NCBI RefSeq assembly: GCF_011745365.1
Contig: NW_024468915.1
Location: forward strand, 2,272,653-2,336,652
Source of the DNA: Cryphonectria parasitica EP155
Lineage: Eukaryota; Ascomycota; Sordariomycetes; Diaporthales; Cryphonectriaceae
Direction: 5' to 3'
DNA length: 64,000 nucleotides
Positions 1 through 46,666 of this stretch are shown in pieces. The number at the start of each line of letters is the position of its first letter. The first letter of the stretch is position 1. The position numbers and the translations under genes were made by a program. The notes under the pieces were generated by a model that searched no databases, was not told where the DNA came from, and saw only the letters and a program-made list of their open reading frames with translations.

Positions 1-101
1 GGGATAAGTCGCTTAGGCACAGCGAGGAGGACAAGGAAGAGGAGGTGGTAGTAGTTGTTGGGGTTGAAGAGGTGGCAGATGGCGTAGAGGTGGCGGAGTA
101 A
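1..101 (+). CDS. C-terminal end of a gene entering from the left (partial)
   Basis: An open frame on the plus strand enters the window and stops with TAA at 99-101, giving about 32 residues. The tail is highly charged and Glu/Val-rich, with EED, KEEE and a run of valines. Acidic tails like this are common at the C-terminus of fungal transporters, but nothing identifies the family. It could also be chance coding potential in a GA-rich stretch. If real, it is the left neighbour of the UstYa array and may belong to the cluster. Confidence 0.35.
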   Translation, partial: DKSLRHSEEDKEEEVVVVVGVEEVADGVEVAE

Positions 102-1098: not shown

Positions 1099-1871
1099 TT
1101 AATACTGCTTACAAGACGTCCAAGTAGCCCGAACCCATGTTGGACAAACCATCTCCGCCGTGCACTCAGTGTCTTCGTGCAGCCAGTCATTCAGAAGAAC
1201 CATCTCGCAGTGATTTGTGTGTTTCCAATCCATCAAGTAGCTGTCGATCGGTTGGTTCTTCTCGAGAAGTGCCTTGTGCATCTTCTTCCACATGTACTGT
1301 TGCGGACGATGGTAAGTAGGGTGATCTGGACAGCGGCGTGACACATGGAGACAGATGGACGCAGTCATGATTCACTTACGGTACAATGAACGTAGTGGTA
1401 CTTCTTCTGCGTAAACAGCTTGGGATAGTCTCCCCGGAAGACAACATCAAGCGGGACCTCCGACTCGGGGGTCAACTTTGGGTCGAAATGCCACGAGTAG
1501 TCGGTTCTGTTCATGAAATCCTTGACCATCTCCTTGTCGTAACACTCTGGGCGAACCCAGATCCAACCCATCGGGTCGAAGATACAGCCCTTTGCACGGG
1601 CCTCTTCAACGGACCCGTCCGCACCACAGTCGCCGTGGTCGACGGGGCCCGCCTGGGCAATATCATGCACCTCTTTGGCTGTGTAAATGATGGCGCAGGC
1701 GCAGACAAGTGCGGTCAGGGCGAGGAGAGCCTTGAGGACCAGGCCTGACCGTGAACGGCGGTTCTGGCTGGCGACTTTCAGCCGCTCGCCCAGAAGAGTC
1801 ATGCCAGAGCCGTCATCTGAAAGTGAGGCAGCCTCGAAGGAGGTCTTGTGGTCTTCTTTGTGAGAGTCCAT
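1099..1871 (-). CDS. UstYa/DUF3328-family oxidase, short type (gene A)
   Basis: Predicted CDS complement(join(1099..1296,1380..1871)), 229 aa. The ATG at 1871 was chosen because it sits a normal distance before the membrane segment; the frame is open further upstream. A Ser/basic N-terminal tail is followed by one transmembrane helix at about residues 44-63, giving a type II membrane protein. The luminal part carries two UstYa histidine-cysteine motifs, HYVHC (159-163) and HTNHC (190-194). These HxxHC pairs are thought to bind the metal used for oxidative cyclisation in ustiloxin-type RiPP pathways. The single intron (1297-1379) has a GTAAGT donor and CAACAG acceptor and lies just after the first motif. 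It shares the AR-x-x-GC-x-FD block with gene D (6782-7507), so the two are paralogues. It is divergent from gene B. The family is clear; the substrate is inferred from the nearby repeat precursor. Confidence 0.85.
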
Positions 1872-2974: not shown

Positions 2975-4102
2975 ATGTCATCAACCAGACCCTCACGAGC
3001 TCTCCTAAACTCAGGACACATGAAGTACTCGCCAGTCTCAACAGAGGATGACCTCTCCATCGAGGAGGGCTCATCATTACAACCCTTTCGTTTCCGCCAT
3101 GGAGATACGTGGCTCCGTCTCTGCCAACTCTTACCTTGGGCACTCACTATTGTCTTTGCCTGTATTTCCATGATTCTATCTATGAAAATCAGCTACAATA
3201 GAGATGAACAGTGTCGCGAGCATGAACAAATTGCCTCTTTTGCAACAGGATACGCTACAGATTTTGGTATACACCCTTACCCACACTCGCACATTGCATC
3301 CAAGAGAAACTTTCTAATTCCTCATGCCTTTCATCAGTAACGGCTCGGCAGCATATTCATGTAGAACAAGTCCGTTTTACGGGATCTCCGTCCTTTCATG
3401 AGGATGGAACGATGTGGATTCCCAATCCAGAGCCTATGCTCTACGTCGGCGATCCAAGTGTCCATCCCGAGATCGACCAAAATTGGGACAACCTTACATG
3501 GGGTGAGCTATTCTTCATTCACAAATTGCGAGGTTCATATCTGACAAAATTTCAAGGCCGCTACATTCTCATCACGAGGGAAGAAGCCATAGAATCTTGG
3601 GGTGAACAGGATATCGATTTATACTTCGACCATCAACGTGGGGGTTATGTTGCTGGGTATGTACCCTCGACGGAGTTCTTTCACAGAGAATGGTTAACTG
3701 ATAAATGAACTCAGGCTGGATATGTTTCATACGCTTCATTGCTTGGTAGGCTGTCCTCATTTTCCTTATACATAGTCTGAGTAATGACCACGGCTAATCC
3801 TTGCTCTGCTGCAGAACCAACTTCGGCAAGCCCTTATGCCGGAGCATTATGAGGCCCATGGGCACAAAGCCAGAGCAGACAATGCTGCGCTGCACCAAAA
3901 TCACTGCATCGAACAGATGCGGCAGTATATCATGTGTTCGGGGGACATGACACCTATACCTACAAAATACTACTCTGGCCTCGGAAGGAATTATGTGGAC
4001 TCTGATGTACCACATACTTGCCGCAACTTTGCAGCTTTGCATGATTGGGTCGTTGCTCGATACGATGGTGCGGAAGCAATACAGCCCATTTTCGAGGCTT
4101 AG
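2975..4102 (+). CDS. UstYa/DUF3328-family oxidase, long type (gene B)
   Basis: Predicted CDS join(2975..3266,3338..3656,3715..3745,3815..4102), 309 aa. All introns are GT-AG and the phases agree, including a 31-nt third exon that carries the first active-site motif. A Ser/acidic cytosolic tail is followed by one helix at about 53-70, then the DUF3328 domain. The two diagnostic motifs are HTLHC (209-213) and HQNHC (241-245), with the usual LNQLRQAL helix after the first and IEQMRQ after the second. Known relatives (UstYa/UstYb, PhomYc) catalyse oxidative macrocyclisation of fungal RiPP cores, and some act in other secondary-metabolite pathways. It is convergent with gene C, a paralogue of the same long type. 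Family assignment is firm; the actual substrate is unproven. Confidence 0.92.
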
Positions 4103-4843: not shown

Positions 4844-5975
4844 TCATTCATTGTGATGATGAGAGGCTGCATGAAACGCTTCCAAGCGAATCTGATACTC
4901 CTCCTGTGGAAAATGGCGATCAGGATGCAACATCCACTCAGTTAACTTCTCAAAATCACGGCAGACATGAGTAGTGTGGGCGTCTGGAAATTCTGACTGC
5001 ACCCGGTCCATCCATTTCCATGGAATGGTGCTGATATCCGAGTAGCATGTGATTGTCTGACGGAGATTATCCACACAGTGATCTAGGGTTACAACATTGT
5101 GTTAGTATTTCCTCACTCAGCTGTGGTTCGTTGGTGTGGCTTGTAATTACCGATATGGATCCAGTACTCCTTTTTCTCCTGCTCATTCATGCTTTTATCT
5201 CCACCGTAGTAGTCTGGGTACAAGGCTCGGCGGATGAAATCTAGACAGTGTAGTTGATGGTAGACTTCAAGCCCGACAATATAACCATCCTCTTCTCCTG
5301 GGATAGGCAGAGTGTGGTTCGGCAACTGCTCTGCCTGTGCCTTTGGAATCTTGATCACGCCGACGCCTGAGGGGGCTGGACTCAGCTTCGAATACTGGTA
5401 GATAGAGTGTAGAGAAATGGTTTGAATTATTACCTCGATAGATGGCATCCCAAGCTTTGTCCACCTCATCAGTTGGGGGGCCCTGCCAAGGCGTCCGATC
5501 TTCGTGGAAGTTATTGTGAAACACGACAGGCTTGTATTCCACAGCTTCGAAAGCTGGGGAGTAGAGTTCAGGGGTGCTTCTCGGGACGTAGTCGATCTTG
5601 TCGCCCTCGGTTGCTGATTCATATCAATATCTATGTAAGTTCTCATGACTACGAGAGAAACCTGGAGTGGGACTGTTAGGACTCACAGTAAAGCTCGGCG
5701 ATATTGATGAAAGTGTCCTTTGACCAGAATTCTCTTCTGGCCCAGAAAATGCAGACAAACGTCAAAAGACTCGCTAGGACAGTGACTGTGAGTTTCAGGA
5801 CTCGTAACTCTCGGACTAAGTTGAGATTGACTGCGAGATCCCCGTCCGACGCAGGGAGCGAGATGTTGTCAAGGGCCTCATCTTTCTGATCCGGCGATGG
5901 AAGAGTCTGATAATCTCTCTTCGCAAGCCGAGAGGAGACTGCTTCGTTGAATTGCCTTTTCAGTTGTGAAAGCAT
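4844..5975 (-). CDS. UstYa/DUF3328-family oxidase, long type (gene C)
   Basis: Predicted CDS complement(join(4844..5082,5151..5375,5434..5613,5687..5975)), 310 aa. A Ser/acidic tail precedes one helix at about 60-79. Then comes the classical DUF3328 block: AFEAVEYKPVVF, FHEDRTPWQGPPTDEVDKAW, followed by HQLHC (196-200) and HIDHC (230-234) with VDNLRQTITC after it. The acceptor at the start of exon 2 (CAG before 5613) is the one that keeps the conserved frame; the longer open frame nearby is a shadow. The third acceptor (before 5375) is less certain but gives the expected GVIKIP stretch. It is head-to-head with gene D and convergent with gene B. Same family role as B: a membrane-anchored oxidase probably working on a secreted precursor. 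Confidence 0.91.
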
Positions 5976-6781: not shown

Positions 6782-7507
6782 ATGTCCCCAAGATATGTGG
6801 ACCACAGCCCTCAGGCCGGGACACTGGGAGACTCAGGACACCTTGATGGCAATATGGACACGGAAGACAAGGAGGACAACGTCTCAGATCTGCGGCAGTC
6901 ACCATATCGCCGTCAACCCTTTTATGCTATTGTCCTATTTGCGGTGTCATTGGTGATCATTGGTGGAATCCTGCTTGTTGGATTTTATTCTACGGCAAAC
7001 AAAGGCACCGAAACATTGGAGCTGAGGATTGATGAGGAGTGCGGTGAGTCTGCTGCCCAGGCAAGACAAGCTGGATGTGTATTTGATGCTATACTCATGG
7101 GTTGGGTGCCTTGGAGGTGCCATGATACGGAACTGGCAGTGGAATTTATGGAAAGGAACGACTGGGCGTTCTACCACGATATGAACAAGACCGGTGCTCC
7201 TGTACCCGAGGATGAAATTCTTCAAGGGGAATGGAGTGAGTTCTATGTGGACTATCATTATCAAGTCATTCACTGTATGTATGCTTGGAGGAAAACACAG
7301 CGTGCTGCGGTGGGTGGGTCGGTACTGGATGGATATCTGGCAGATCCTCATCACACAAGCCATTGTGAGATGATGCTTTCGCATGAAGACCTGGCTGATA
7401 AGACTGTCTATATGAAGTATGCTGGCTGTCCACATATTCATGTAAACCGGGGTCGTTTTGGTTGGTATAGGATGCTTGGTGGCAAGAAAACTTATAGGCA
7501 ACCATAA
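6782..7507 (+). CDS. UstYa/DUF3328-like oxidase, short type, variant first motif (gene D)
   Basis: Intronless, 241 aa, with an ATG at 6782. An acidic tail is followed by one helix at about 47-68. The luminal part has the AR-x-x-GC-x-FD block and a W-rich segment shared with gene A. The second motif is intact, HTSHC at 191-195. At the first motif the sequence reads QVIHC (161-165), so the first histidine of HxxHC is a glutamine, with another histidine two residues earlier. The MYAWRK stretch after it aligns with YMWKK of gene A, so the placement is secure. Gene A has an intron just here, so D may have lost it. The variant may change metal binding or mark a non-catalytic partner; UstY proteins often act in pairs. 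It is divergent from gene C. Confidence 0.85.
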   Translation: MSPRYVDHSPQAGTLGDSGHLDGNMDTEDKEDNVSDLRQSPYRRQPFYAIVLFAVSLVIIGGILLVGFYSTANKGTETLELRIDEECGESAAQARQAGCVFDAILMGWVPWRCHDTELAVEFMERNDWAFYHDMNKTGAPVPEDEILQGEWSEFYVDYHYQVIHCMYAWRKTQRAAVGGSVLDGYLADPHHTSHCEMMLSHEDLADKTVYMKYAGCPHIHVNRGRFGWYRMLGGKKTYRQP

Positions 7508-7768: not shown

Positions 7769-8780
7769 CTATTCATCGAGCGCATATCCATCAGTCCCTT
7801 CATCCGTCCTTTCGATAGTAATAGAACCCAAATCAAGACCCTCTACAGTCCTTACATTGAGTGGCTTCAGATTCAAGTTCTTATGGTAGACGGCCAGGGC
7901 TAGCTCCTTTCGCTCAGCAGGGAGTTTGTCGAAGATGCTAATGGGTGGTCCATAGATATTCGAGAAAACCATGACGCCACAGGTCTTGCAGTGAGAGATG
8001 CCACTGTACCCGGGTGCCTTCTTGTACTCAAAGGTATCTTCCATGCCGCGGAGTTTGACTTGATCCTTGGTAGGATAAACTCCTATATATGCATTCTGGC
8101 AAGGTCATTGAGTAAGAAGTCTCAACATAAAAAGTTCGTCATGCTGATTGTTGGATTCGAGCTTACTCTGACACATGAGCTACAGTTGTCTTCTTTCACC
8201 TCTTGCTCCTGTAGAGGGGTGAAAAGCTCCGCCTGGACGGCCGCACAGTGGCATGAGAACAAATGCTGTGCTTGCGGTTCGGAACGACTGGGGTTTCGCG
8301 TCTGCTGTTTATCTTCCTCTGCGTGGCTGGTGGTCACCCTGCAGGCTAAGTTCAGAAAACGGAAGACAGTGGAATGGGAAAAGGTTATCGTACTGAATTT
8401 TGAAAGGATTCACCCCTTGGATCGCCCGCACATTCACAGCAAGCTGGCCACTCAGTGGTCCAGTCAGATGTTCACCAACCACTCCTGTGCCGCAGTAGTT
8501 GCAAAACTGGTGGGTTTGCTAGTCAACAAGGGAAACGCAAGGGGCCAGGGATCAGTTGAATACACACCTGGTCATGGAGAGATTTGCAATAGTAGTGGCT
8601 TAGGTTCTCATCATCCTTGGTCACCTGGAAACTGCCCTTTGGGGGCACAAGCCAGAGATAGCCTTTCTTTTCGCAAAGACCACAGGAACAACGTATTGCA
8701 CTTTGAATTTCGGGCACTGTCAAAGTGAAACGAAAGCGCCCACAGTGACAATTGCCACGGTATGTTTGTAAGTCAGCCAT
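7769..8780 (-). CDS. Double GFA-domain (CENP-V/Mss4-like) zinc protein
   Basis: Predicted CDS complement(join(7769..8095,8167..8338,8394..8506,8568..8780)), 274 aa, all introns GT-AG with matching phase. Two tandem GFA folds are visible. The first has CHCGRFRF, CSCGLCEKKG and FCNYCGTG; the second has SCHCAAVQ, NCSSCVR and HCKTCGVMVF. These cysteine sets are the zinc sites of the GFA/CENP-V superfamily, named after glutathione-dependent formaldehyde-activating enzyme. The biochemical role of fungal members is mostly unknown. It has no signal peptide, so it is probably cytosolic. It lies 0.26 kb from gene D (convergent) and 1.1 kb from the repeat precursor (divergent), so it could be a cluster member or a bystander. 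An ATG 7 codons upstream is an alternative start. Confidence 0.85.
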
Positions 8781-9850: not shown

Positions 9851-10321
9851 ATGAAGTTCTCCATCCTCCTCTTCGTTGCCACCGCTCTCGGTGCGCCTGT
9901 CGTCACGCAGCGCGATACTGACACCACTGAGGGCGTCGTCACTTGGGCTGATGTGGCTGCACGCGACACCGATACCACTGAGGGTGTCGTTACTTGGGCC
10001 GACGTTGCTGCTCGTGACTCTGACACTACCGAGGGTGTCGTCACTTGGGCCGACGTTGCTGCGCGTGACTCTGACACTACCGAGGGTGTCGTCACTTGGG
10101 CCGACGTTGCTGCGCGTGACTCTGACACTACCGAGGGTGTTGTTACTTGGGCGGATGTCGCCGCGCGTGACTCTGACACTACTGAGGGTGTTGTTACTTG
10201 GGCCGACGTCGCTGCGCGTGGCACTGATACCACTGAGGGTGTTGTCACTTGGGCCGACGTTGCTGCGCGTGACACTGACACCACTGAGGGTGTCGTTACT
10301 TGGGCCGACGTTGCTGCATAG
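9851..10321 (+). CDS. Secreted eight-repeat peptide precursor, candidate RiPP precursor
   Basis: 156 aa, ATG at 9851 in good context (CGCAATGA). Residues 1-15 form a signal peptide (MKFSILLFVATALGA), followed by a five-residue link, PVVTQ. The rest is eight tandem 17-residue units, R-[DG]-[TS]-DTTEGVVTWADVAA, with the last ending at the stop. Cutting after each arginine would free eight 16-17-residue peptides of three kinds: D-T (units 1, 2, 8), D-S (units 3-6) and G-T (unit 7). There are no dibasic Kex2 sites, only single Arg after Ala-Ala. Trp is the only aromatic residue and there is no Cys. Signal peptide plus repeated cores is the layout of UstA/PhomA-type precursors, and four UstYa oxidases lie 2-9 kb away. 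The role is therefore inferred as the substrate of those oxidases. Alternatives are a repeat-rich effector or a wall-associated peptide (Rep1-like). Confidence 0.85.
   Translation: MKFSILLFVATALGAPVVTQRDTDTTEGVVTWADVAARDTDTTEGVVTWADVAARDSDTTEGVVTWADVAARDSDTTEGVVTWADVAARDSDTTEGVVTWADVAARDSDTTEGVVTWADVAARGTDTTEGVVTWADVAARDTDTTEGVVTWADVAA
9911..10318 (+). repeat. Eight tandem 51-bp units coding the core peptide
   Basis: Units start at 9911, 9962, 10013, 10064, 10115, 10166, 10217 and 10268. Units 3 and 4 are identical in DNA. The others differ mostly at third codon positions, while the peptide changes at only two sites. The absence of stops in the unit leaves three frames open across the array, so the long open frames on the minus strand and in the other plus frame are shadows. 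Confidence 0.95.
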
Positions 10322-15767: not shown

Positions 15768-16225
15768 AGCTGGTTGACAGCCTCGCGACTTAATCACCGA
15801 GCTTAGCGCAGACCTATACCTGCATAGGGAGTGCTAGCCGGACAACCCCGCTGGAGAGTTCACTGGACCGCGCCATGATAAGGTCAGAAGGCTTTCATCC
15901 TGCTGTCGATCTTCAAGGTAATGAGAATATCCGAGTGTGGAGTTGACTAGTCCTATTTGTTTGTCCAAGAGGGGAGATGACAACCTCGGCCAGGTAGACT
16001 ACTCCATGACCCTGATAGGAGGAAGCTGTCTACGTGGGGAAGGGGGGCCCTGGCTCGAATCTTTGATGTCGTCCAGAGGTGGTTTTGATAAATAGCCATG
16101 ATGGTTCCCGCGATGGATGATCAGGTTGCTTCTTGTTGGCTCTTCACCTCTCTCGACAATCTCCTACTAGGCAAAGTGGTTTTTTCCCGCTCTGCTTGGC
16201 AACGAGAAGTGATCGCAAAGCAATC

Positions 16226-18864
16226 ATGAGACTCTCGGATTCTATCTCGACCGGCTCGGCCGTCACACTCTCTCTGGCAACCCTCGGGCTGCTGGCAGAG
16301 AATGTGCTCGCCCGCCCTTCTCCCGAGCCCAAGGCGTCCTGGGTTCGTAAGGGCCACGGGCGCAAGGCCATGTCCAACGTGCTGAAGGGCAAGCGCGATG
16401 TCAACCTGCACAGGTTGACGGCCCGCAACGAGACTGCTTCCTGCTCTGGCGCGGGTGCCGTGGAGATCACGGCCCCCAAGCAGAATGTGTGGGACCAGCT
16501 CGACGATTCTGATGCTGCCAGTGTTGTTGCTTGGCTGTTTGCGCAGGAGCAGTTCAACTTGACGGTTTCGGAGGATGCCGGCCCATGGGATAACACAATG
16601 TGAGTTCTTATATATATATATATACATATATAAGATATGCCCAACACAGCTGACAATGAATTTTAAAATAGTATCCTTGTGGAGGCCATTCAGCCCAACA
16701 AGACTGATGCCTTGGCATATATCGACAGCGAGTGCACGGCGGCACCCACCAAGTGGGCCAAGGTTGTGCTCGATGTGCGAGCCACCGATGAGCCTTACTA
16801 TCAAGATCTGATGGTTGGCCCAGTCCCTATCGACAACGCTACCGTCACCTATCAGCCTCTTACCTACCCTCTGACCAAGAAGACGGAGGGCAAGGTGCGC
16901 AACCTTGCTGCGGATGACGACGATGCCCTGTATACAGACTGGCTGTACCCCATCAGCGCGTCGATATCCGACATCACCCTGGACCTGTGGAACGGCACTG
17001 GTCTGGGCCTGGACAACGACACTCTGGATATCTGGGGCATTGATCCTCTGTGGCAAGAGGATGGACGTATCGTCCGCTGGGATACCTTCTGGAACTACCC
17101 CACCGACGAGTACGACGCCGAGACCCTTCTTCCTCTTGGACTCTTCTTCAAGTCGGATGTTACCGGCCGTGACCCAAGCCAGTGGAAGCTCGAGGGCTGG
17201 CTGTACAACGACATCTTCTATGAGACCACCGAGGAGTTCCGTGCCGCCTACTGGAGCGAGGGCTTCGTCAAGAACGGCGCCAACGTCGAAGGTGCTTGGG
17301 CCGGAACCGACCAGCAAGGTGAGATCCTGCCCATGGACGTCCTCTACCCGCCTGTCTCTGTCGCGCCCGCTGGCAACCGCTTCTCCGTCGACGCCGAGCA
17401 AAAGTACGTCGAGTGGATGGACTTCAGCTTTTACATTGGCTTCTCTCGTGATTCTGGCATCTCGCTGCACGACATCCGGTACAAGGGCGAGCGGCTCATC
17501 TACGAGCTTGCCCTGAACGAGGCGCTGGCCCACTACGCCGGCAACGACCCCGTCCAGTCTGGCACCGCGTACCTGGACAGCTACTACGGCTTTGGCCCCT
17601 ACGCCTTCGAGCTGGTTTCTGGCTATGACTGCCCCAGCTACAGCACGTACCTCAACTCGACCTTCTACGTGTCCGAGACTGTGCACACGCACATCAACAG
17701 CATCTGCCTGTTCGAGTACGATGCCGACTTCCCCATCCAGCGGCACTCCAACAGCGAGTACGTTGCCGTGACCAAGAACACGTACTTCTCTGTGCGCTCC
17801 GTGTCGACTGTGGGCAACTACGACTACATGTTCACCTACACCTTCTTCCTGGACGGCTCCATTGCCGTCGAGGTGCGTGCCTCGGGCTACATCCAGTCTG
17901 CCTACTTCGCCGCGAACCAGGACTACGGCTATCAGATCCACGACTTCCTCTCTGGCTCCATGCACGACCACGTGCTCAACTTCAAGGCCGACTTCGACAT
18001 CCTCGGCACTGCCAACACGGTCCAGCTCATGACCAACACGCCCGTGACGACCACCTACCCCTGGTCCGGCAACAAGACCCGCAACACCATGAAGCTCGAG
18101 CGCAAGTTCATCGAGAGCGAGGACGAGGGCCGTATCAACTGGGACACCAACTCCGTCACCCAGGTCCTTGTCGTCAACCAGGACGAGCTGAACGACTACG
18201 GCGAGATGCGCGGCTACCGCGTGCTGCCCTACACGGGCACTGCCCACCTGACGGTCCAGAACAGCAGCAACCTGGTCAACGCCGCACACTGGGCCGAGTA
18301 CGATGTGCAGTTCACCCGTCAGAAGGATACCGAGCCCAAGTCGGCTCACGCCTACAACAGCCAGGACGTCAATGATCCTCCTGTTAACTTTGCCGAGTTC
18401 TTTGACGGCGAGAGCCTCGACCAGGAGGATCTGGTCGTCTGGTTCAACCTGGGCATGCACCATGGTAAGTGATCGCACATCCTCCCAAGCTATATTAGCA
18501 ACATTCCTACCACCCTGGCAAAATGGAATGCCCCCCAGCTAACTTTGATGCCTTAACAGTTCCCCACACTGGTGATCTGCCCAACACCGTCTTCACCACC
18601 GCTCACTCGGGCGTCCAGTTCATGCCCTCCAACTACTTCAACCTGGACCAAAGTCGCAGCACTGTCAACATGGTCAAGATCCAGTACGAGAACGGCACCA
18701 CTGTCGCTGTCGACACTTTCGGGCAGAAGCAGACCTCGGGCACGTGCGAGATCGACTACTCGGCTCAGGAGGCGGACTTCTGGGACTACACCGGTGACGT
18801 GGTCGTGCGCAAGTTCCCGTATGATCCTAATGACTGGTACTATGAGACGGACTCGATTGTCTAG
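16226..18864 (+). CDS. Secreted copper amine oxidase
   Basis: Predicted CDS join(16226..16599,16672..18464,18560..18864), 823 aa. It oxidises primary amines to aldehydes with release of ammonia and hydrogen peroxide, using copper and a topaquinone made from its own tyrosine. The cofactor motif VGNYDY is present (Tyr about 508). Copper ligands are the H-x-H pair in MHDH (about 556/558) and a later His in GMHHVPHTGDLP (about 722), which spans the second intron. The candidate catalytic Asp is in YLDSYYGFG (about 427). An N-terminal hydrophobic segment (about 12-28) and many N-glycosylation sites point to secretion. Exon 1 ends at a GTGAGT donor, and intron 1 contains a (TA)n stretch. Third codon positions are strongly GC, unlike the UstYa genes. 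A role in nitrogen scavenging from amines is likely. Confidence 0.95.
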
Positions 18865-43478: not shown

Positions 43479-45508
43479 ACCCTTACCATGATCAGCAGCA
43501 CCAGCCCAGAGAGACATTGGGGTGACGATTTCGATGTAGTGAGAAGCCATGATTCGACTGGCTTCTAAGGAAGATGGATGACTGCGAACACGGTAGCAGT
43601 AGGTATATTTGAAATTGGACACAGAAGATGGCTGGCCGACAATATGTACTTAGAAGGAACGCACACAAGCTTGTTTCGATTCTAATCCAAGAAGTTCATT
43701 TTTAAAACTATAGTATTGACATAAAGGAGCTTCAGTATCGATCAATTAGCTTGAAATGGCTTGAGTACTATAGTAAACTCTGTCAGAGTGGCTTGATAGT
43801 TGTCTTTGGGGAGTGGCGGAAAAGTTCCGGAGAAACATCTCAACTGCTCTTCATCGTCAATATAATGCATATTATTTAACGACATGTTTCATGGATTGAT
43901 ATAGCGAGTTGACCCGAAGACCGTCTACTATGGGGTTTGGAAGATAAGATCTGGCGAAAGTATCAGAAATGGCTTTTGATAGATGAGGGAAGCGTGTCTG
44001 GTTCTTTTATTTCTCGCTTGGGGAAAGGGGCAGGAGAAAGAGATACTCTTACGATGAATGATTGTAAAAGCCAAGACGTCACAATAAACCATGAAGGAGA
44101 AGAGAATTCTCATACTTGGTAAAGGAAAAATTGAGATGCCCCCCTCCCCCGCTGTAATGAATGCACTGCAATATCCGAAGATCTGAAGTACACAAAGGGT
44201 TTATGCTAACAAGAGCGGTGTCGAAGTAGAATCCACTGAATACGGAAATATAACTGTGGTCTGTGCAAGTGCTGATCATTCGCCTTTGGGGCTATTCAAG
44301 TGTGTGACAAATGAATACTTAGATTGACGACTGAAGAGCTATGTCCTGGTGGTCTATCTAATGGTAATGAACGTGTTCTTATATATCCCGCTCTTCAGTG
44401 TGGCTCACTATTGCTCGGTGATGCTCACTGAGGCCCGATGAGCACTGGTGAGCTCCTCTGATTGGTTGGCCTGTACTAACCCTAACCCTAGGTTACCTAA
44501 TCTTGGTTGGGCGTGTTTATCCTTCAAACTGTAACTGCCGGTTCTTTGTTGGCGGGGCCTGTCCTGTGACCTGCATGTCGGATGGGTCATAACACCCGCA
44601 CCCGTTTCTTTAATAGCTGTTTTTGCAAGCCAGGAATGGGTCTAACTGCCAATAAAAGCTAGAAGAAGACAAAAGAGAAAAGAAATCAGGTGGTTGAACT
44701 TGCCTACTTGTCACAAGTCACAAATTGTCGGATGGCTGTCCGTCCAGCTCCTTCAGAAGCGGCCGTCACTGCGCCATCACCTGGCTTTCACATGCTTATT
44801 CCTTACTCATTAACCGGGATTCTCTCAAAGTCTTGCGAGACATTAGCAAAAGTCCATTATATAAGGAGCCTGCTAACTATGAAAACTGTTATTGGTCAGG
44901 TGGTGATGTGGGTGGGGGATTGTCAATGAAATGTAACTGAATGAAGGCAGCAATGAAGCTGATGTACACCGAGTGACCCGTGCCATTCATCACAGAGACT
45001 CTCTATATTTCAGTAGCTTTAGTACCTCTAGTAGGGGTGATCTGCCTAGAACGTACCTGGCCATCATGCTCTGCCCTAGAATGCTGTTTTTCCAAATTAG
45101 GTGGAATCGGGCAAGGAATGGCAATGCTTATTCAATAAGATTCACCATTGGCTCGCAGCACAGCATTTTTCCTTTGTCTACTTCATTTCCCTCTTATTTT
45201 TCATGCCATTATTATGCGTATCTTCTGGCCAAGACCGGGTCGTTCAAGACCATCGTCGAGGCAACATTGACCTGTTGGAACCTCTTCGAAGGGCCGCACC
45301 TTCTTTCGGTACATATATTCTCAACGAACTCACCAAGTTCAGTTTATCCTGAGTCACACAAGTTTTGTTCGACTAGGGTGACTGTCCCCTTCTCTCCTTC
45401 TATCTCACCTACGGCAACGGCATCTCGATTTGCTTATTTCCCAGAAAACCCCGACCCTCCCCTCTCTCAAACCCAGAACCACGGCATACTCATATCCTGC
45501 TCAACACC
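43479..45508. other. Intergenic, about 2 kb, with a short telomere-like motif
   Basis: No supported gene. Contains CTAACCCTAACCCTAG at 44476-44491. The leader before the RNA ligase (about 45150-45500) is pyrimidine-rich and may include 5' UTR. Confidence 0.55.
44476..44491. repeat. Short interstitial telomere-like motif
   Basis: Two and a half copies of CCCTAA, the complement of the fungal telomere repeat TTAGGG. Too short to be a former chromosome end with any confidence. Confidence 0.5.
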
Positions 45509-46666
45509 ATGACACCTCCACGAAAACTAGTAACCCTGCACAAAGTCACTCACATCCACCCCACGCGAGGCACCAGGTACAAGAGCCACTATGAAGTAGC
45601 AACCGTCGGCGGTGGGTGGACCGTCGTTGTCTACCGTGGCGACTTCAAGGTCGGCCAGCTGGTCCTGTACTTTGAGATCGACAGCTTCATTCCCGCGACA
45701 AACGGGCGCTTCAGCTGGGAGGTGTCTGACACTCTGACCGAATTTCGAGGCGAAAAGGGCTACCACGTTCGGTCGCAGATGCTCGGCAAGCAGCTCTCGC
45801 AAGGTCTCGTGCAGCAGGTCGGGGCGATGCCTGAGGTCAACGCCGTGCTGGAGGGGCTGCAGAAGAAGCATGGGGTGTGCAAAGGCACAGAGATGGCGAT
45901 GGAGATGGCATTTGAGGACAGAATCGGCGTCAAGAAATGGGAGGTCCCGTTCGAGGTGCAGGGCCAGATCCTCGGTCCAGCGCCATCATTCTTCCCTCGG
46001 CCGGCGAGCGAGCGAGTCCAGAACATACCCGACCTCTTCACACACAGATACCTCAACGAGGTGTTCCAGGTCACCGAGAAGCTGGATGGTGTCTCCATGA
46101 CTGTCTATAGCGTTGTGCGCGGCTCGAAATGGTACAAGGCTTTGCCTGCGGTGCCCGTTGGCCCAGGGCAGGAGACACAGGACGTGCGATTTGGCGTGGC
46201 CAGTGCGAACAAGGGCCTTGACGAGCGAGGCAACGATCTCTACTGGAATGCGGCCAAGCGGCTCGGCCTTCCCACCAGGCTCCATGGGATTGGTGGTGTC
46301 CAGAATGTCGCTATCCAGGGCGAGCTTGTTGGCCCCGCCATCAAGCGCAATAGCATGCGTTTTCCGGACAGCGCCGAGCACAATTTTTTTGTGTTTCAGA
46401 TCTTCGATATCGACAAGCAGGAGTACCTACCGCCTGTAGAGGTAGTGGACATCTGTGAGAGAATGGCACTCCCACACGTACCTGTTCTTGGTTACTTCAA
46501 GCTGCGAGATTTCGCCGCGAGCCTGAACGAGATATTGGCCAAGGCTGAGGGGGTCGGCACATGGGGACAGACTAGAGAGGGTTATGTGTTCAAGAGCGTC
46601 AGCTCGCGGAAGGACTTTACTTTCAAAGTGATTTCCAACAAATGGCTGCTCGAGCAGGGCGAGTAG
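45509..46666 (+). CDS. RNA ligase, DraRnl (Rnl5)-like
   Basis: Intronless, 385 aa, ATG at 45509. It belongs to the nucleotidyltransferase superfamily that joins RNA 3'-OH and 5'-phosphate ends through ligase-AMP and RNA-adenylate. The nucleotidyl-attachment motif is EKLDGVSM with Lys about 191. Motif IV is EGYVFKS and motif V is FKVISNKW. Upstream is a distinct N-terminal domain of about 165 residues with GDFKVGQLVLYFEIDSFIP, an OB-like module characteristic of the Deinococcus RNA ligase DraRnl group. There is no organelle signal that I can read, so it is probably cytosolic or nuclear and likely in nicked-RNA repair. Neighbours give no hint. GC-rich codon use is like that of ordinary genes. 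Confidence 0.93.
   Translation: MTPPRKLVTLHKVTHIHPTRGTRYKSHYEVATVGGGWTVVVYRGDFKVGQLVLYFEIDSFIPATNGRFSWEVSDTLTEFRGEKGYHVRSQMLGKQLSQGLVQQVGAMPEVNAVLEGLQKKHGVCKGTEMAMEMAFEDRIGVKKWEVPFEVQGQILGPAPSFFPRPASERVQNIPDLFTHRYLNEVFQVTEKLDGVSMTVYSVVRGSKWYKALPAVPVGPGQETQDVRFGVASANKGLDERGNDLYWNAAKRLGLPTRLHGIGGVQNVAIQGELVGPAIKRNSMRFPDSAEHNFFVFQIFDIDKQEYLPPVEVVDICERMALPHVPVLGYFKLRDFAASLNEILAKAEGVGTWGQTREGYVFKSVSSRKDFTFKVISNKWLLEQGE

What the first reader, a model, noticed from the sequence alone, without database searches (positions are those of the whole stretch)
9851..10321. New-looking repeat precursor with single-Arg sites and one Trp per repeat
A signal peptide is followed by eight 17-residue units (R-[DG]-[TS]-DTTEGVVTWADVAA). 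Known fungal UstYa-linked precursors that I know of have Kex2 dibasic sites and Tyr/Phe cores. Here every unit border is a single Arg after Ala-Ala, and Trp is the only aromatic residue. If UstYa enzymes act on it, the product would be a Trp-crosslinked cyclic peptide, a chemotype I do not recognise. Peptide release would then need a monobasic-cutting protease.
Basis: partly seen in the sequence, partly recalled or inferred. Interest (0 to 1): 0.92.

Follow-up and report, generated by a model that had tools for sequence, protein, structure and literature searches.

The report
Fungal tryptophan-repeat peptide precursor cluster
The chestnut blight fungus appears to carry a small secreted protein made of eight near-identical tryptophan-containing repeats beside five genes for proven or possible copper enzymes, and relatives in other fungi suggest that it is cut up and probably oxidised into small modified peptides.

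Summary
Window 9851-10321 (+) encodes a hydrophobic leader and eight 17-residue units; 16 of 51 nucleotide columns vary among units, 14 at third codon positions. The genome is probably Cryphonectria parasitica EP155 (contig-length match).

The unit is not isolated. Eight other public proteins carry VVTWAD[VI], 28 copies including the window's eight. In six of them the window's AA-R corresponds to xK-R, a classical Kex2 site; in two, fragments of one metagenomic family, to VD-R. All seven internal window borders read V-A-A-R, with Arg at P1 and an aliphatic residue at P4, which fits the expanded Kex2 motif apart from its unusual P2. An exotic protease is therefore not required.

The precursor lies near three canonical UstYa genes and two divergent HxxHC-type genes (B, E). 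In Copromyces, precursor, B homologue and E homologue are reported on a contig of one length, 119,433 bp.

Best reading: a UstYa-type (dikaritin-like) peptide cluster with an invariant Trp core, which a dibasic-site filter would miss. A Trp cross-link is plausible but unproven.

The parts
9851..10321 (+). Repeat precursor protein, 156 aa
   Evidence: one match in the genome; homologues
9851..9910 (+). Signal-peptide-like leader MKFSILLFVATALGAPVVTQ
   Evidence: By eye. Of the 8 homologues, 6 begin with a comparable leader, P0001 has one inside a longer annotated N-terminus, and the fragment P0007 has none. No signal-peptide program was available
9911..10318 (+). Eight 17-residue units R[DG][TS]DTTEG-VVTWADV-AA; conserved core VVTWADV
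6782..7507 (+). Gene E: single-exon protein with a predicted N-terminal membrane helix and two HC motifs (QVIHC ... HTSHC), possibly a divergent UstYa relative
1099..1871 (-). Gene B: relative of E, two exons (intron 1297-1379, chosen for its canonical splice sites), HYVHC ... HTNHC
2975..4102 (+). Gene C: canonical UstYa (PF11807), several predicted introns, HTLHC ... HQNHC
4844..5975 (-). Gene D: canonical UstYa (PF11807), predicted introns near 5614-5686, 5367-5433 and 5083-5150, HQLHC ... HIDHC (the second motif spans the last splice junction); 3' end placed by eye
1..101 (+). 3' end of gene A, a canonical UstYa that begins left of the window (C7:2271592), HTLHC ... HTAHC; end placed by eye
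7772..8780 (-). GFA-like gene (glutathione-dependent formaldehyde-activating type) between E and the precursor; limits by eye; role unknown
   Evidence: 17.7 bits, below Pfam's 24.3 cut-off

Best explanation
The gene encodes the multi-core precursor of a UstYa-type ribosomal peptide. Proposed path. (1) The leader sends the protein into the secretory pathway [inferred from sequence]. (2) The Kex2-type convertase of the Golgi cuts after Arg at V-x-x-R borders, giving eight near-identical 16-17-residue peptides, and a carboxypeptidase removes the terminal Arg [inferred]. (3) The membrane-anchored UstYa enzymes A, C and D, and the divergent HxxHC pair B/E, oxidise side chains of the conserved VVTWADV core by binuclear copper chemistry [inferred]. 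The indole of the invariant Trp, coupled to a nearby Val, Thr or Asp, is the likeliest ring-closing site (about 0.4 within this reading). (4) The variable flanks (DTDTTE-, -AA) are trimmed and the product is exported [speculative]. The single-Arg border differs from the KR of most relatives and probably works through the same convertase.
For: Repeat under protein-level constraint. Eight other proteins share VVTWAD[VI] units, 28 copies with the window's, while flanks vary. Six have KR where the window has AAR, two have VDR. C, D, B and E lie within about 9 kb of the precursor start, A about 9.8-10.9 kb away; A, C and D carry two HxxHC motifs each. In Copromyces sp. CBS 386.78, precursor P0005, B-type P0022 and E-type P0063 are each reported on a contig of 119,433 bp. 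On all 7 contig lengths that two of the 63 hits share, one hit is B-type and one E-type. A kexin-like gene is present. PMC12435403 (passages): a DUF3328 enzyme is a membrane-anchored binuclear copper enzyme with HxxHC(x)nHxxHC; the E model has a comparable layout.
Against: No product, expression or mass data. The relation of B/E to UstYa is weak by sequence: small alignments gave hhalign probability 5.9%; larger ones 47%, P 0.0002, reversed control P 0.43. One of 33 family members reaches PF11807 at E 0.039, whereas Rad10 scores better (4 members, best E 0.0073). No PDB fold match with E <= 0.001. E lacks the first His of the first motif. Ala is not among the best P2 residues listed for Kex2. 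W is not enriched in published KEPs next to DUF3328 genes (20.5% against 24.5%, PMC7329392). No S41 peptidase match in the genome and no tyrosinase nearby; ustiloxin and phomopsin need a tyrosinase (PMC7329392; S41 peptidases recalled). Gene order in relatives could not be read. N. tetraspora, which has the precursor, gave no B/E hit.
Confidence: 0.62

Rival explanations
1. A sub-reading of the above: the UstYa enzymes modify the peptide but leave Trp alone. They desaturate, hydroxylate or cross-link Val, Thr or Asp, and Trp is conserved for binding its target or the enzyme.
For: A DUF3328 protein hydroxylates cyclochlorotine (PMC12435403 passages), and UstYa-family proteins install dehydroamino acids in phomopsins (Sogahata 2021, seen only as a reference title). 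V, V, T and D of the core are as invariant as W (by the pattern used).
Against: In ustiloxin, phomopsin and asperipin-2a the ring closes on the aromatic ring of Tyr (PMC7329392 passages), and Trp is the only aromatic here.
Confidence: 0.3
2. The precursor releases linear, unmodified peptides (signal, pheromone-like or effector-like) and the UstYa genes make something else.
For: 78% of published KEPs have no DUF3328 neighbour, and W frequency is not higher next to DUF3328 genes (PMC7329392 passages).
Against: PMC7329392 found DUF3328 neighbours for only three KEPs annotated as pheromones.
Confidence: 0.2
3. Release at V-A-A-R is done by another protease with single-basic preference (for example a yapsin-type aspartyl protease), not by Kex2.
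For: Ala is not among the top P2 residues listed in PMC8528282; yapsins cut at single basic residues (recalled).
Against: KR at the same place in six relatives; V or I kept at P4; the leader border is single-Arg in several relatives too (SISPR, SIAQR, AINR).
Confidence: 0.3
4. A repetitive surface or structural protein (Rep1- or Hum3-like) that is not a precursor of small metabolites.
For: Secreted repetitive Kex2-cut proteins of that kind exist (PMC7329392 passages).
Against: Short acidic units; only two units in P0004 and P0005; enzyme genes nearby.
Confidence: 0.07

Closest known systems
Dikaritins / ust-RiPS (ustiloxin, phomopsin, asperipin-2a)
   Same: Secreted multi-repeat precursor with UstYa (DUF3328) genes nearby; the phomopsin cluster also has five DUF3328 genes (PMC7329392, passages)
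   Different: Trp instead of Tyr core, single-Arg borders, no tyrosinase nearby, two divergent HxxHC-type genes
Kex2-processed repeat proteins (KEPs; PMC6339444, PMC7329392, passages)
   Same: Leader plus near-identical units with basic residues between them
   Different: PMC7329392 required KR, KK, RK or RR between repeats, and this protein has no such pair, so that filter excludes it
Plant burpitides (lyciumin, moroidin)
   Same: Copper-dependent peptide cyclases; [quoted passage not shown] moroidin recalled)
   Different: Analogy only; BURP and UstYa proteins were not compared here
GVVTWADV proteins of Neurospora tetraspora (P0001) and Copromyces (P0005)
   Same: Same core and leader type
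   Different: KR borders, 5 and 2 units, different spacers; unnamed hypothetical proteins

Membership tests
KEP as defined in PMC7329392 | At least 3 repeats of at least 8 aa between KR, KK, RK or RR | tested here: not met
   Eight repeats but no dibasic pair anywhere in the protein (definition)
KEP in the wider sense | Repeat units separated by Kex2-compatible sites | tested here: inconclusive
   V-A-A-R fits aliphatic P4 and Arg P1; P2 Ala is not among the listed best residues. Cleavage not tested
KEP in the wider sense | ER signal peptide | tested here: inconclusive
   Leader looks like one by eye; no predictor available
Dikaritin / ust-RiPS | UstYa (DUF3328) genes close to a repeat precursor | tested here: met
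   A, C and D exons match PF11807 over the cut-off
Dikaritin / ust-RiPS | Double HxxHC motif in the UstYa enzymes | tested here: met
   A, C and D in predicted gene models. B also has two and E only the second in full (sequences)
Dikaritin / ust-RiPS | Core peptide oxidatively cyclised | not testable with these tools
   Needs a product
Dikaritin / ust-RiPS | Tyr in the core and a tyrosinase in the cluster (ustiloxin, phomopsin) | tested here: not met
   No Tyr in the repeats; nearest tyrosinase match on C7 is at 1.476 Mb, about 0.8 Mb away
UstYa family, genes B and E | PF11807 match | tested here: not met
   No match for B or E reading frames; 1 of 33 family members at E 0.039
UstYa family, genes B and E | Remote homology and architecture: membrane helix, then two helices each with an HC motif | tested here: inconclusive
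   hhalign 5.9% and 47% with P 0.0002; the E model has helix 41-74, then 158-178 and 189-200 carrying the motifs; no PDB match
Alpha-pheromone precursor | MF_alpha-type Pfam match | tested here: not met
   Pfam gives only two sub-cut-off hits, neither of them MF_alpha

The most novel reading that the evidence does not exclude
A fungal counterpart of the plant Trp-cross-linked burpitides: the B/E pair is a two-protein copper oxidase outside Pfam's UstYa model that joins the indole of VVTWADV to a neighbouring side chain, in a peptide family found in Cryphonectria, Neurospora and Copromyces and missed by dibasic-site mining when its borders are single-Arg. E-type members often lack a His of the first motif (8 of 25 keep HxxHC there, against 33 of 36 B-types, fragments included), which would make B the catalytic half and E a partner.
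Probability: 0.3. Interest if true: 0.82.

Novelty: new variant of a known kind. Interest (0 to 1): 0.6.

Why it matters
The largest survey of fungal repeat precursors that I saw (PMC7329392, passages) kept only repeats between dibasic sites; a precursor with single-Arg borders like this one is lost by that filter. The cluster also offers a defined, conserved Trp-only substrate for copper UstYa chemistry, where I recall no characterised Trp product, and it points to an HxxHC-type protein pair that no Pfam model covers well.

Tried and rejected
Pfam hits of the precursor to an anti-CRISPR family and a Mu transposase family: below cut-off, taken as repeat artefacts. Hits P0003 and P0010 were dropped before counting: P0003 (E 0.0035 and 0.0017) repeats GVVTW but continues RLL and has no clear leader; P0010 has E 9.6. 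Both precursor searches scored only the 7997 candidates sharing most words, so the family may be larger. Reverse-strand and other-frame ORFs over the repeat: by-products of the 51-bp period. Tyrosinase and S41 peptidase as cluster members: none nearby. PDB sequence searches for D and E and fold search for E: nothing. Repeat scan of the loci then held from UstYa regions: one further clear precursor (C1), the rest simple repeats or other frames; the scan needed a 5-mer three times in an ORF of 45 aa or more, so weaker precursors are not excluded. My first view that the C1 precursor shows the same single-Arg system was cut back: besides [LIV]-E-A-R it has 13 NNGR sites, 3 LEDR sites and a KK pair in the units, so its cleavage sites are open and a dibasic filter might keep it; for this I lowered the main confidence from 0.65 to 0.62. 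Literature strings of the unit: 0 papers in the held library. Searches (30 of 399 listed; 14 of 15; 25 of 34,764; 15 of 37; 12 of 31; 40 of 213): no listed title or abstract start concerned a Trp-cross-linked UstYa product.

Full report
Observation. The reading frame at 9851-10321 (+) encodes a leader MKFSILLFVATALGAPVVTQ and eight 17-residue units R[DG][TS]DTTEGVVTWADVAA. The array is the strongest tandem repeat of the window (score 564, highest of 6 rows). Among the eight units, 16 of 51 columns vary, 14 at third codon positions; pN/pS is 0.047, so the peptide is held constant while the DNA drifts. Seven of eight borders are AA-R; the first is TQ-R. The search of the genome gave one match. 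The window's own protein was not listed among the hits, so it seems to be unannotated.

Source. The window lies in G000 contig C7 of 3,395,974 bases. The nearest hit for gene E is M406DRAFT_72712 of Cryphonectria parasitica EP155 on a contig of exactly that length, 97% identical over 65% of the query. I therefore take the genome to be that of the chestnut blight fungus; this is an inference.

A family of precursors. Two searches (each scored only the 7997 candidates sharing most words) gave ten proteins in all. Eight carry the core: Neurospora tetraspora P0001, Copromyces P0005, four unnamed ones (P0002, P0004, P0006, P0007) and two metagenomic fragments of one family (P0008, P0009). P0003 and P0010 were dropped as unrelated. 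Together with the window there are 28 copies of VVTWAD[VI]. The residues before it are EG (18), QG (7) or DE (3). The residues after it are AAR (7), IKR (7), GKR (5), VDR (3), TKR (2), and one each of VNS, SKL, IKT and, in the window's last unit, AA-stop. The core is constant and the flanks drift.

Release. Six relatives have KR after at least one unit; the window has AAR and P0008/P0009 have VDR. P4 is V in all eight window sites. In the relatives P4 at unit borders and leader borders is V or I except for M in P0007's first site and A in the leader site of P0008 and P0009; P0001 and P0005 have no Arg at the leader border. PMC8528282 (passages) describes Kex2 as needing Arg at P1, preferring Leu or another aliphatic at P4, and tolerating varied P2 (top alternatives Arg, Thr, Pro, Glu, Ile; Ala is not named). 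The genome has a kexin-like gene (one P_proprotein match; subtilisin-like and transmembrane parts read by eye in L042), and the same review cites Kex2 silencing in this species. Cleavage itself is not shown.

A second repeat protein. At C1:903130-904338 (-), about 3 kb from a UstYa gene, lies a protein with 14 PHHQGK units, preceded by LEAR (6), IEAR (4), VEAR (3) or VDVR (1). This resembles the window's borders in having single Arg and aliphatic P4. It also has 13 NNGR and 3 LEDR sites and a KK pair in its units, so which sites are used is open. It is weak support for single-Arg release, no more.

Enzymes. Three canonical UstYa genes (A, which ends at window position 101, and C and D inside the window) match PF11807 over the cut-off and carry two HxxHC motifs each in predicted gene models. 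B and E have no Pfam match for UstYa but belong to a family with 63 public hits, one of them the published model of E itself. By motif these are 25 E-type, 36 B-type and 2 unassigned. On all 7 contig lengths shared by two hits, one is B-type and one E-type; five of these belong to named organisms, and two rest on length alone. The other 49 hits had no partner in the list. The first motif keeps HxxHC in 33 of 36 B-types and 8 of 25 E-types, fragments included; the window's E reads QVIHC. Profile comparison with UstYa gave 5.9% probability with small alignments and 47%, P 0.0002, with larger ones, aligning a short stretch that holds the two HC motifs (reversed control P 0.43). Against PF11807, 1 of 33 members reaches E 0.039, while Rad10 matches 4 members at best E 0.0073. 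The AlphaFold model of E (mean pLDDT 75.8; 95 of 241 residues at 90 or more) has a long N-terminal helix and then two helices bearing the motifs, a layout comparable to that described for CctR in PMC12435403 (passages). No PDB entry matches. I regard B and E as possible to probable distant UstYa relatives, not proven ones. Two more B/E-like loci exist in the genome, one about 2.6 kb from another UstYa region on C4.

Linkage elsewhere. In Copromyces sp. CBS 386.78 the precursor P0005, B-type P0022 and E-type P0063 are each reported on one contig of 119,433 bp. This is the main evidence that precursor and B/E belong together; gene order could not be read. N. tetraspora gave no B/E hit.

Neighbours. 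A GFA-like gene lies between E and the precursor (below Pfam's cut-off). To the left are an MFS transporter and a FAD oxidoreductase, then a large SWI2/SNF2-type helicase (recognised by eye). To the right are a copper amine oxidase and an MFS gene. Whether any belongs to the cluster is open. No tyrosinase is near and no S41 peptidase match exists in the genome.

Comparison with what is known. PMC7329392 (passages) defines KEPs by KR, KK, RK or RR between repeats, reports Tyr in 65.6% of repeats next to DUF3328 genes, and gives W content rates of 20.5% with and 24.5% without DUF3328 neighbours, with one Trp type (P-3) noted. Trp alone is therefore no sign of modification. The precursor here fails the dibasic criterion. 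No paper in the held library contains the tested strings of the unit.

Verdict. A real precursor, most likely of a UstYa-modified peptide family with an invariant Trp core. The Trp cross-link, the role of B/E and the identity of the cutting protease remain hypotheses.

Noticed in passing
G000 C1:903130-904338 (-), loci L039 and L041: A second repeat precursor (14 PHHQGK units; [LIV]-E-A-R, NNGR and KK all present) about 3 kb from a UstYa gene; may belong with the di-histidine KEP types mentioned in PMC7329392.
   Followed up: partly
window 6782-7507: The public gene model of E (P0011, 178 aa) is truncated and lacks both HC motifs, while the genomic frame is open for 241 aa.
   Followed up: yes
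G000 C4:104866-105264 and C3:1414773-1415216: Two further B/E-like loci, one about 2.6 kb from a UstYa-rich region at C4:107844-114432 in which the repeat scan found no precursor.
   Followed up: partly
window 16121-18864: Copper amine oxidase gene with MFS genes to its right; may or may not belong to the cluster.
   Followed up: no
window 45377-46666: ORF with an RNA_ligase domain and a PHA02142 OB-fold domain, unexpected in this setting.
   Followed up: no
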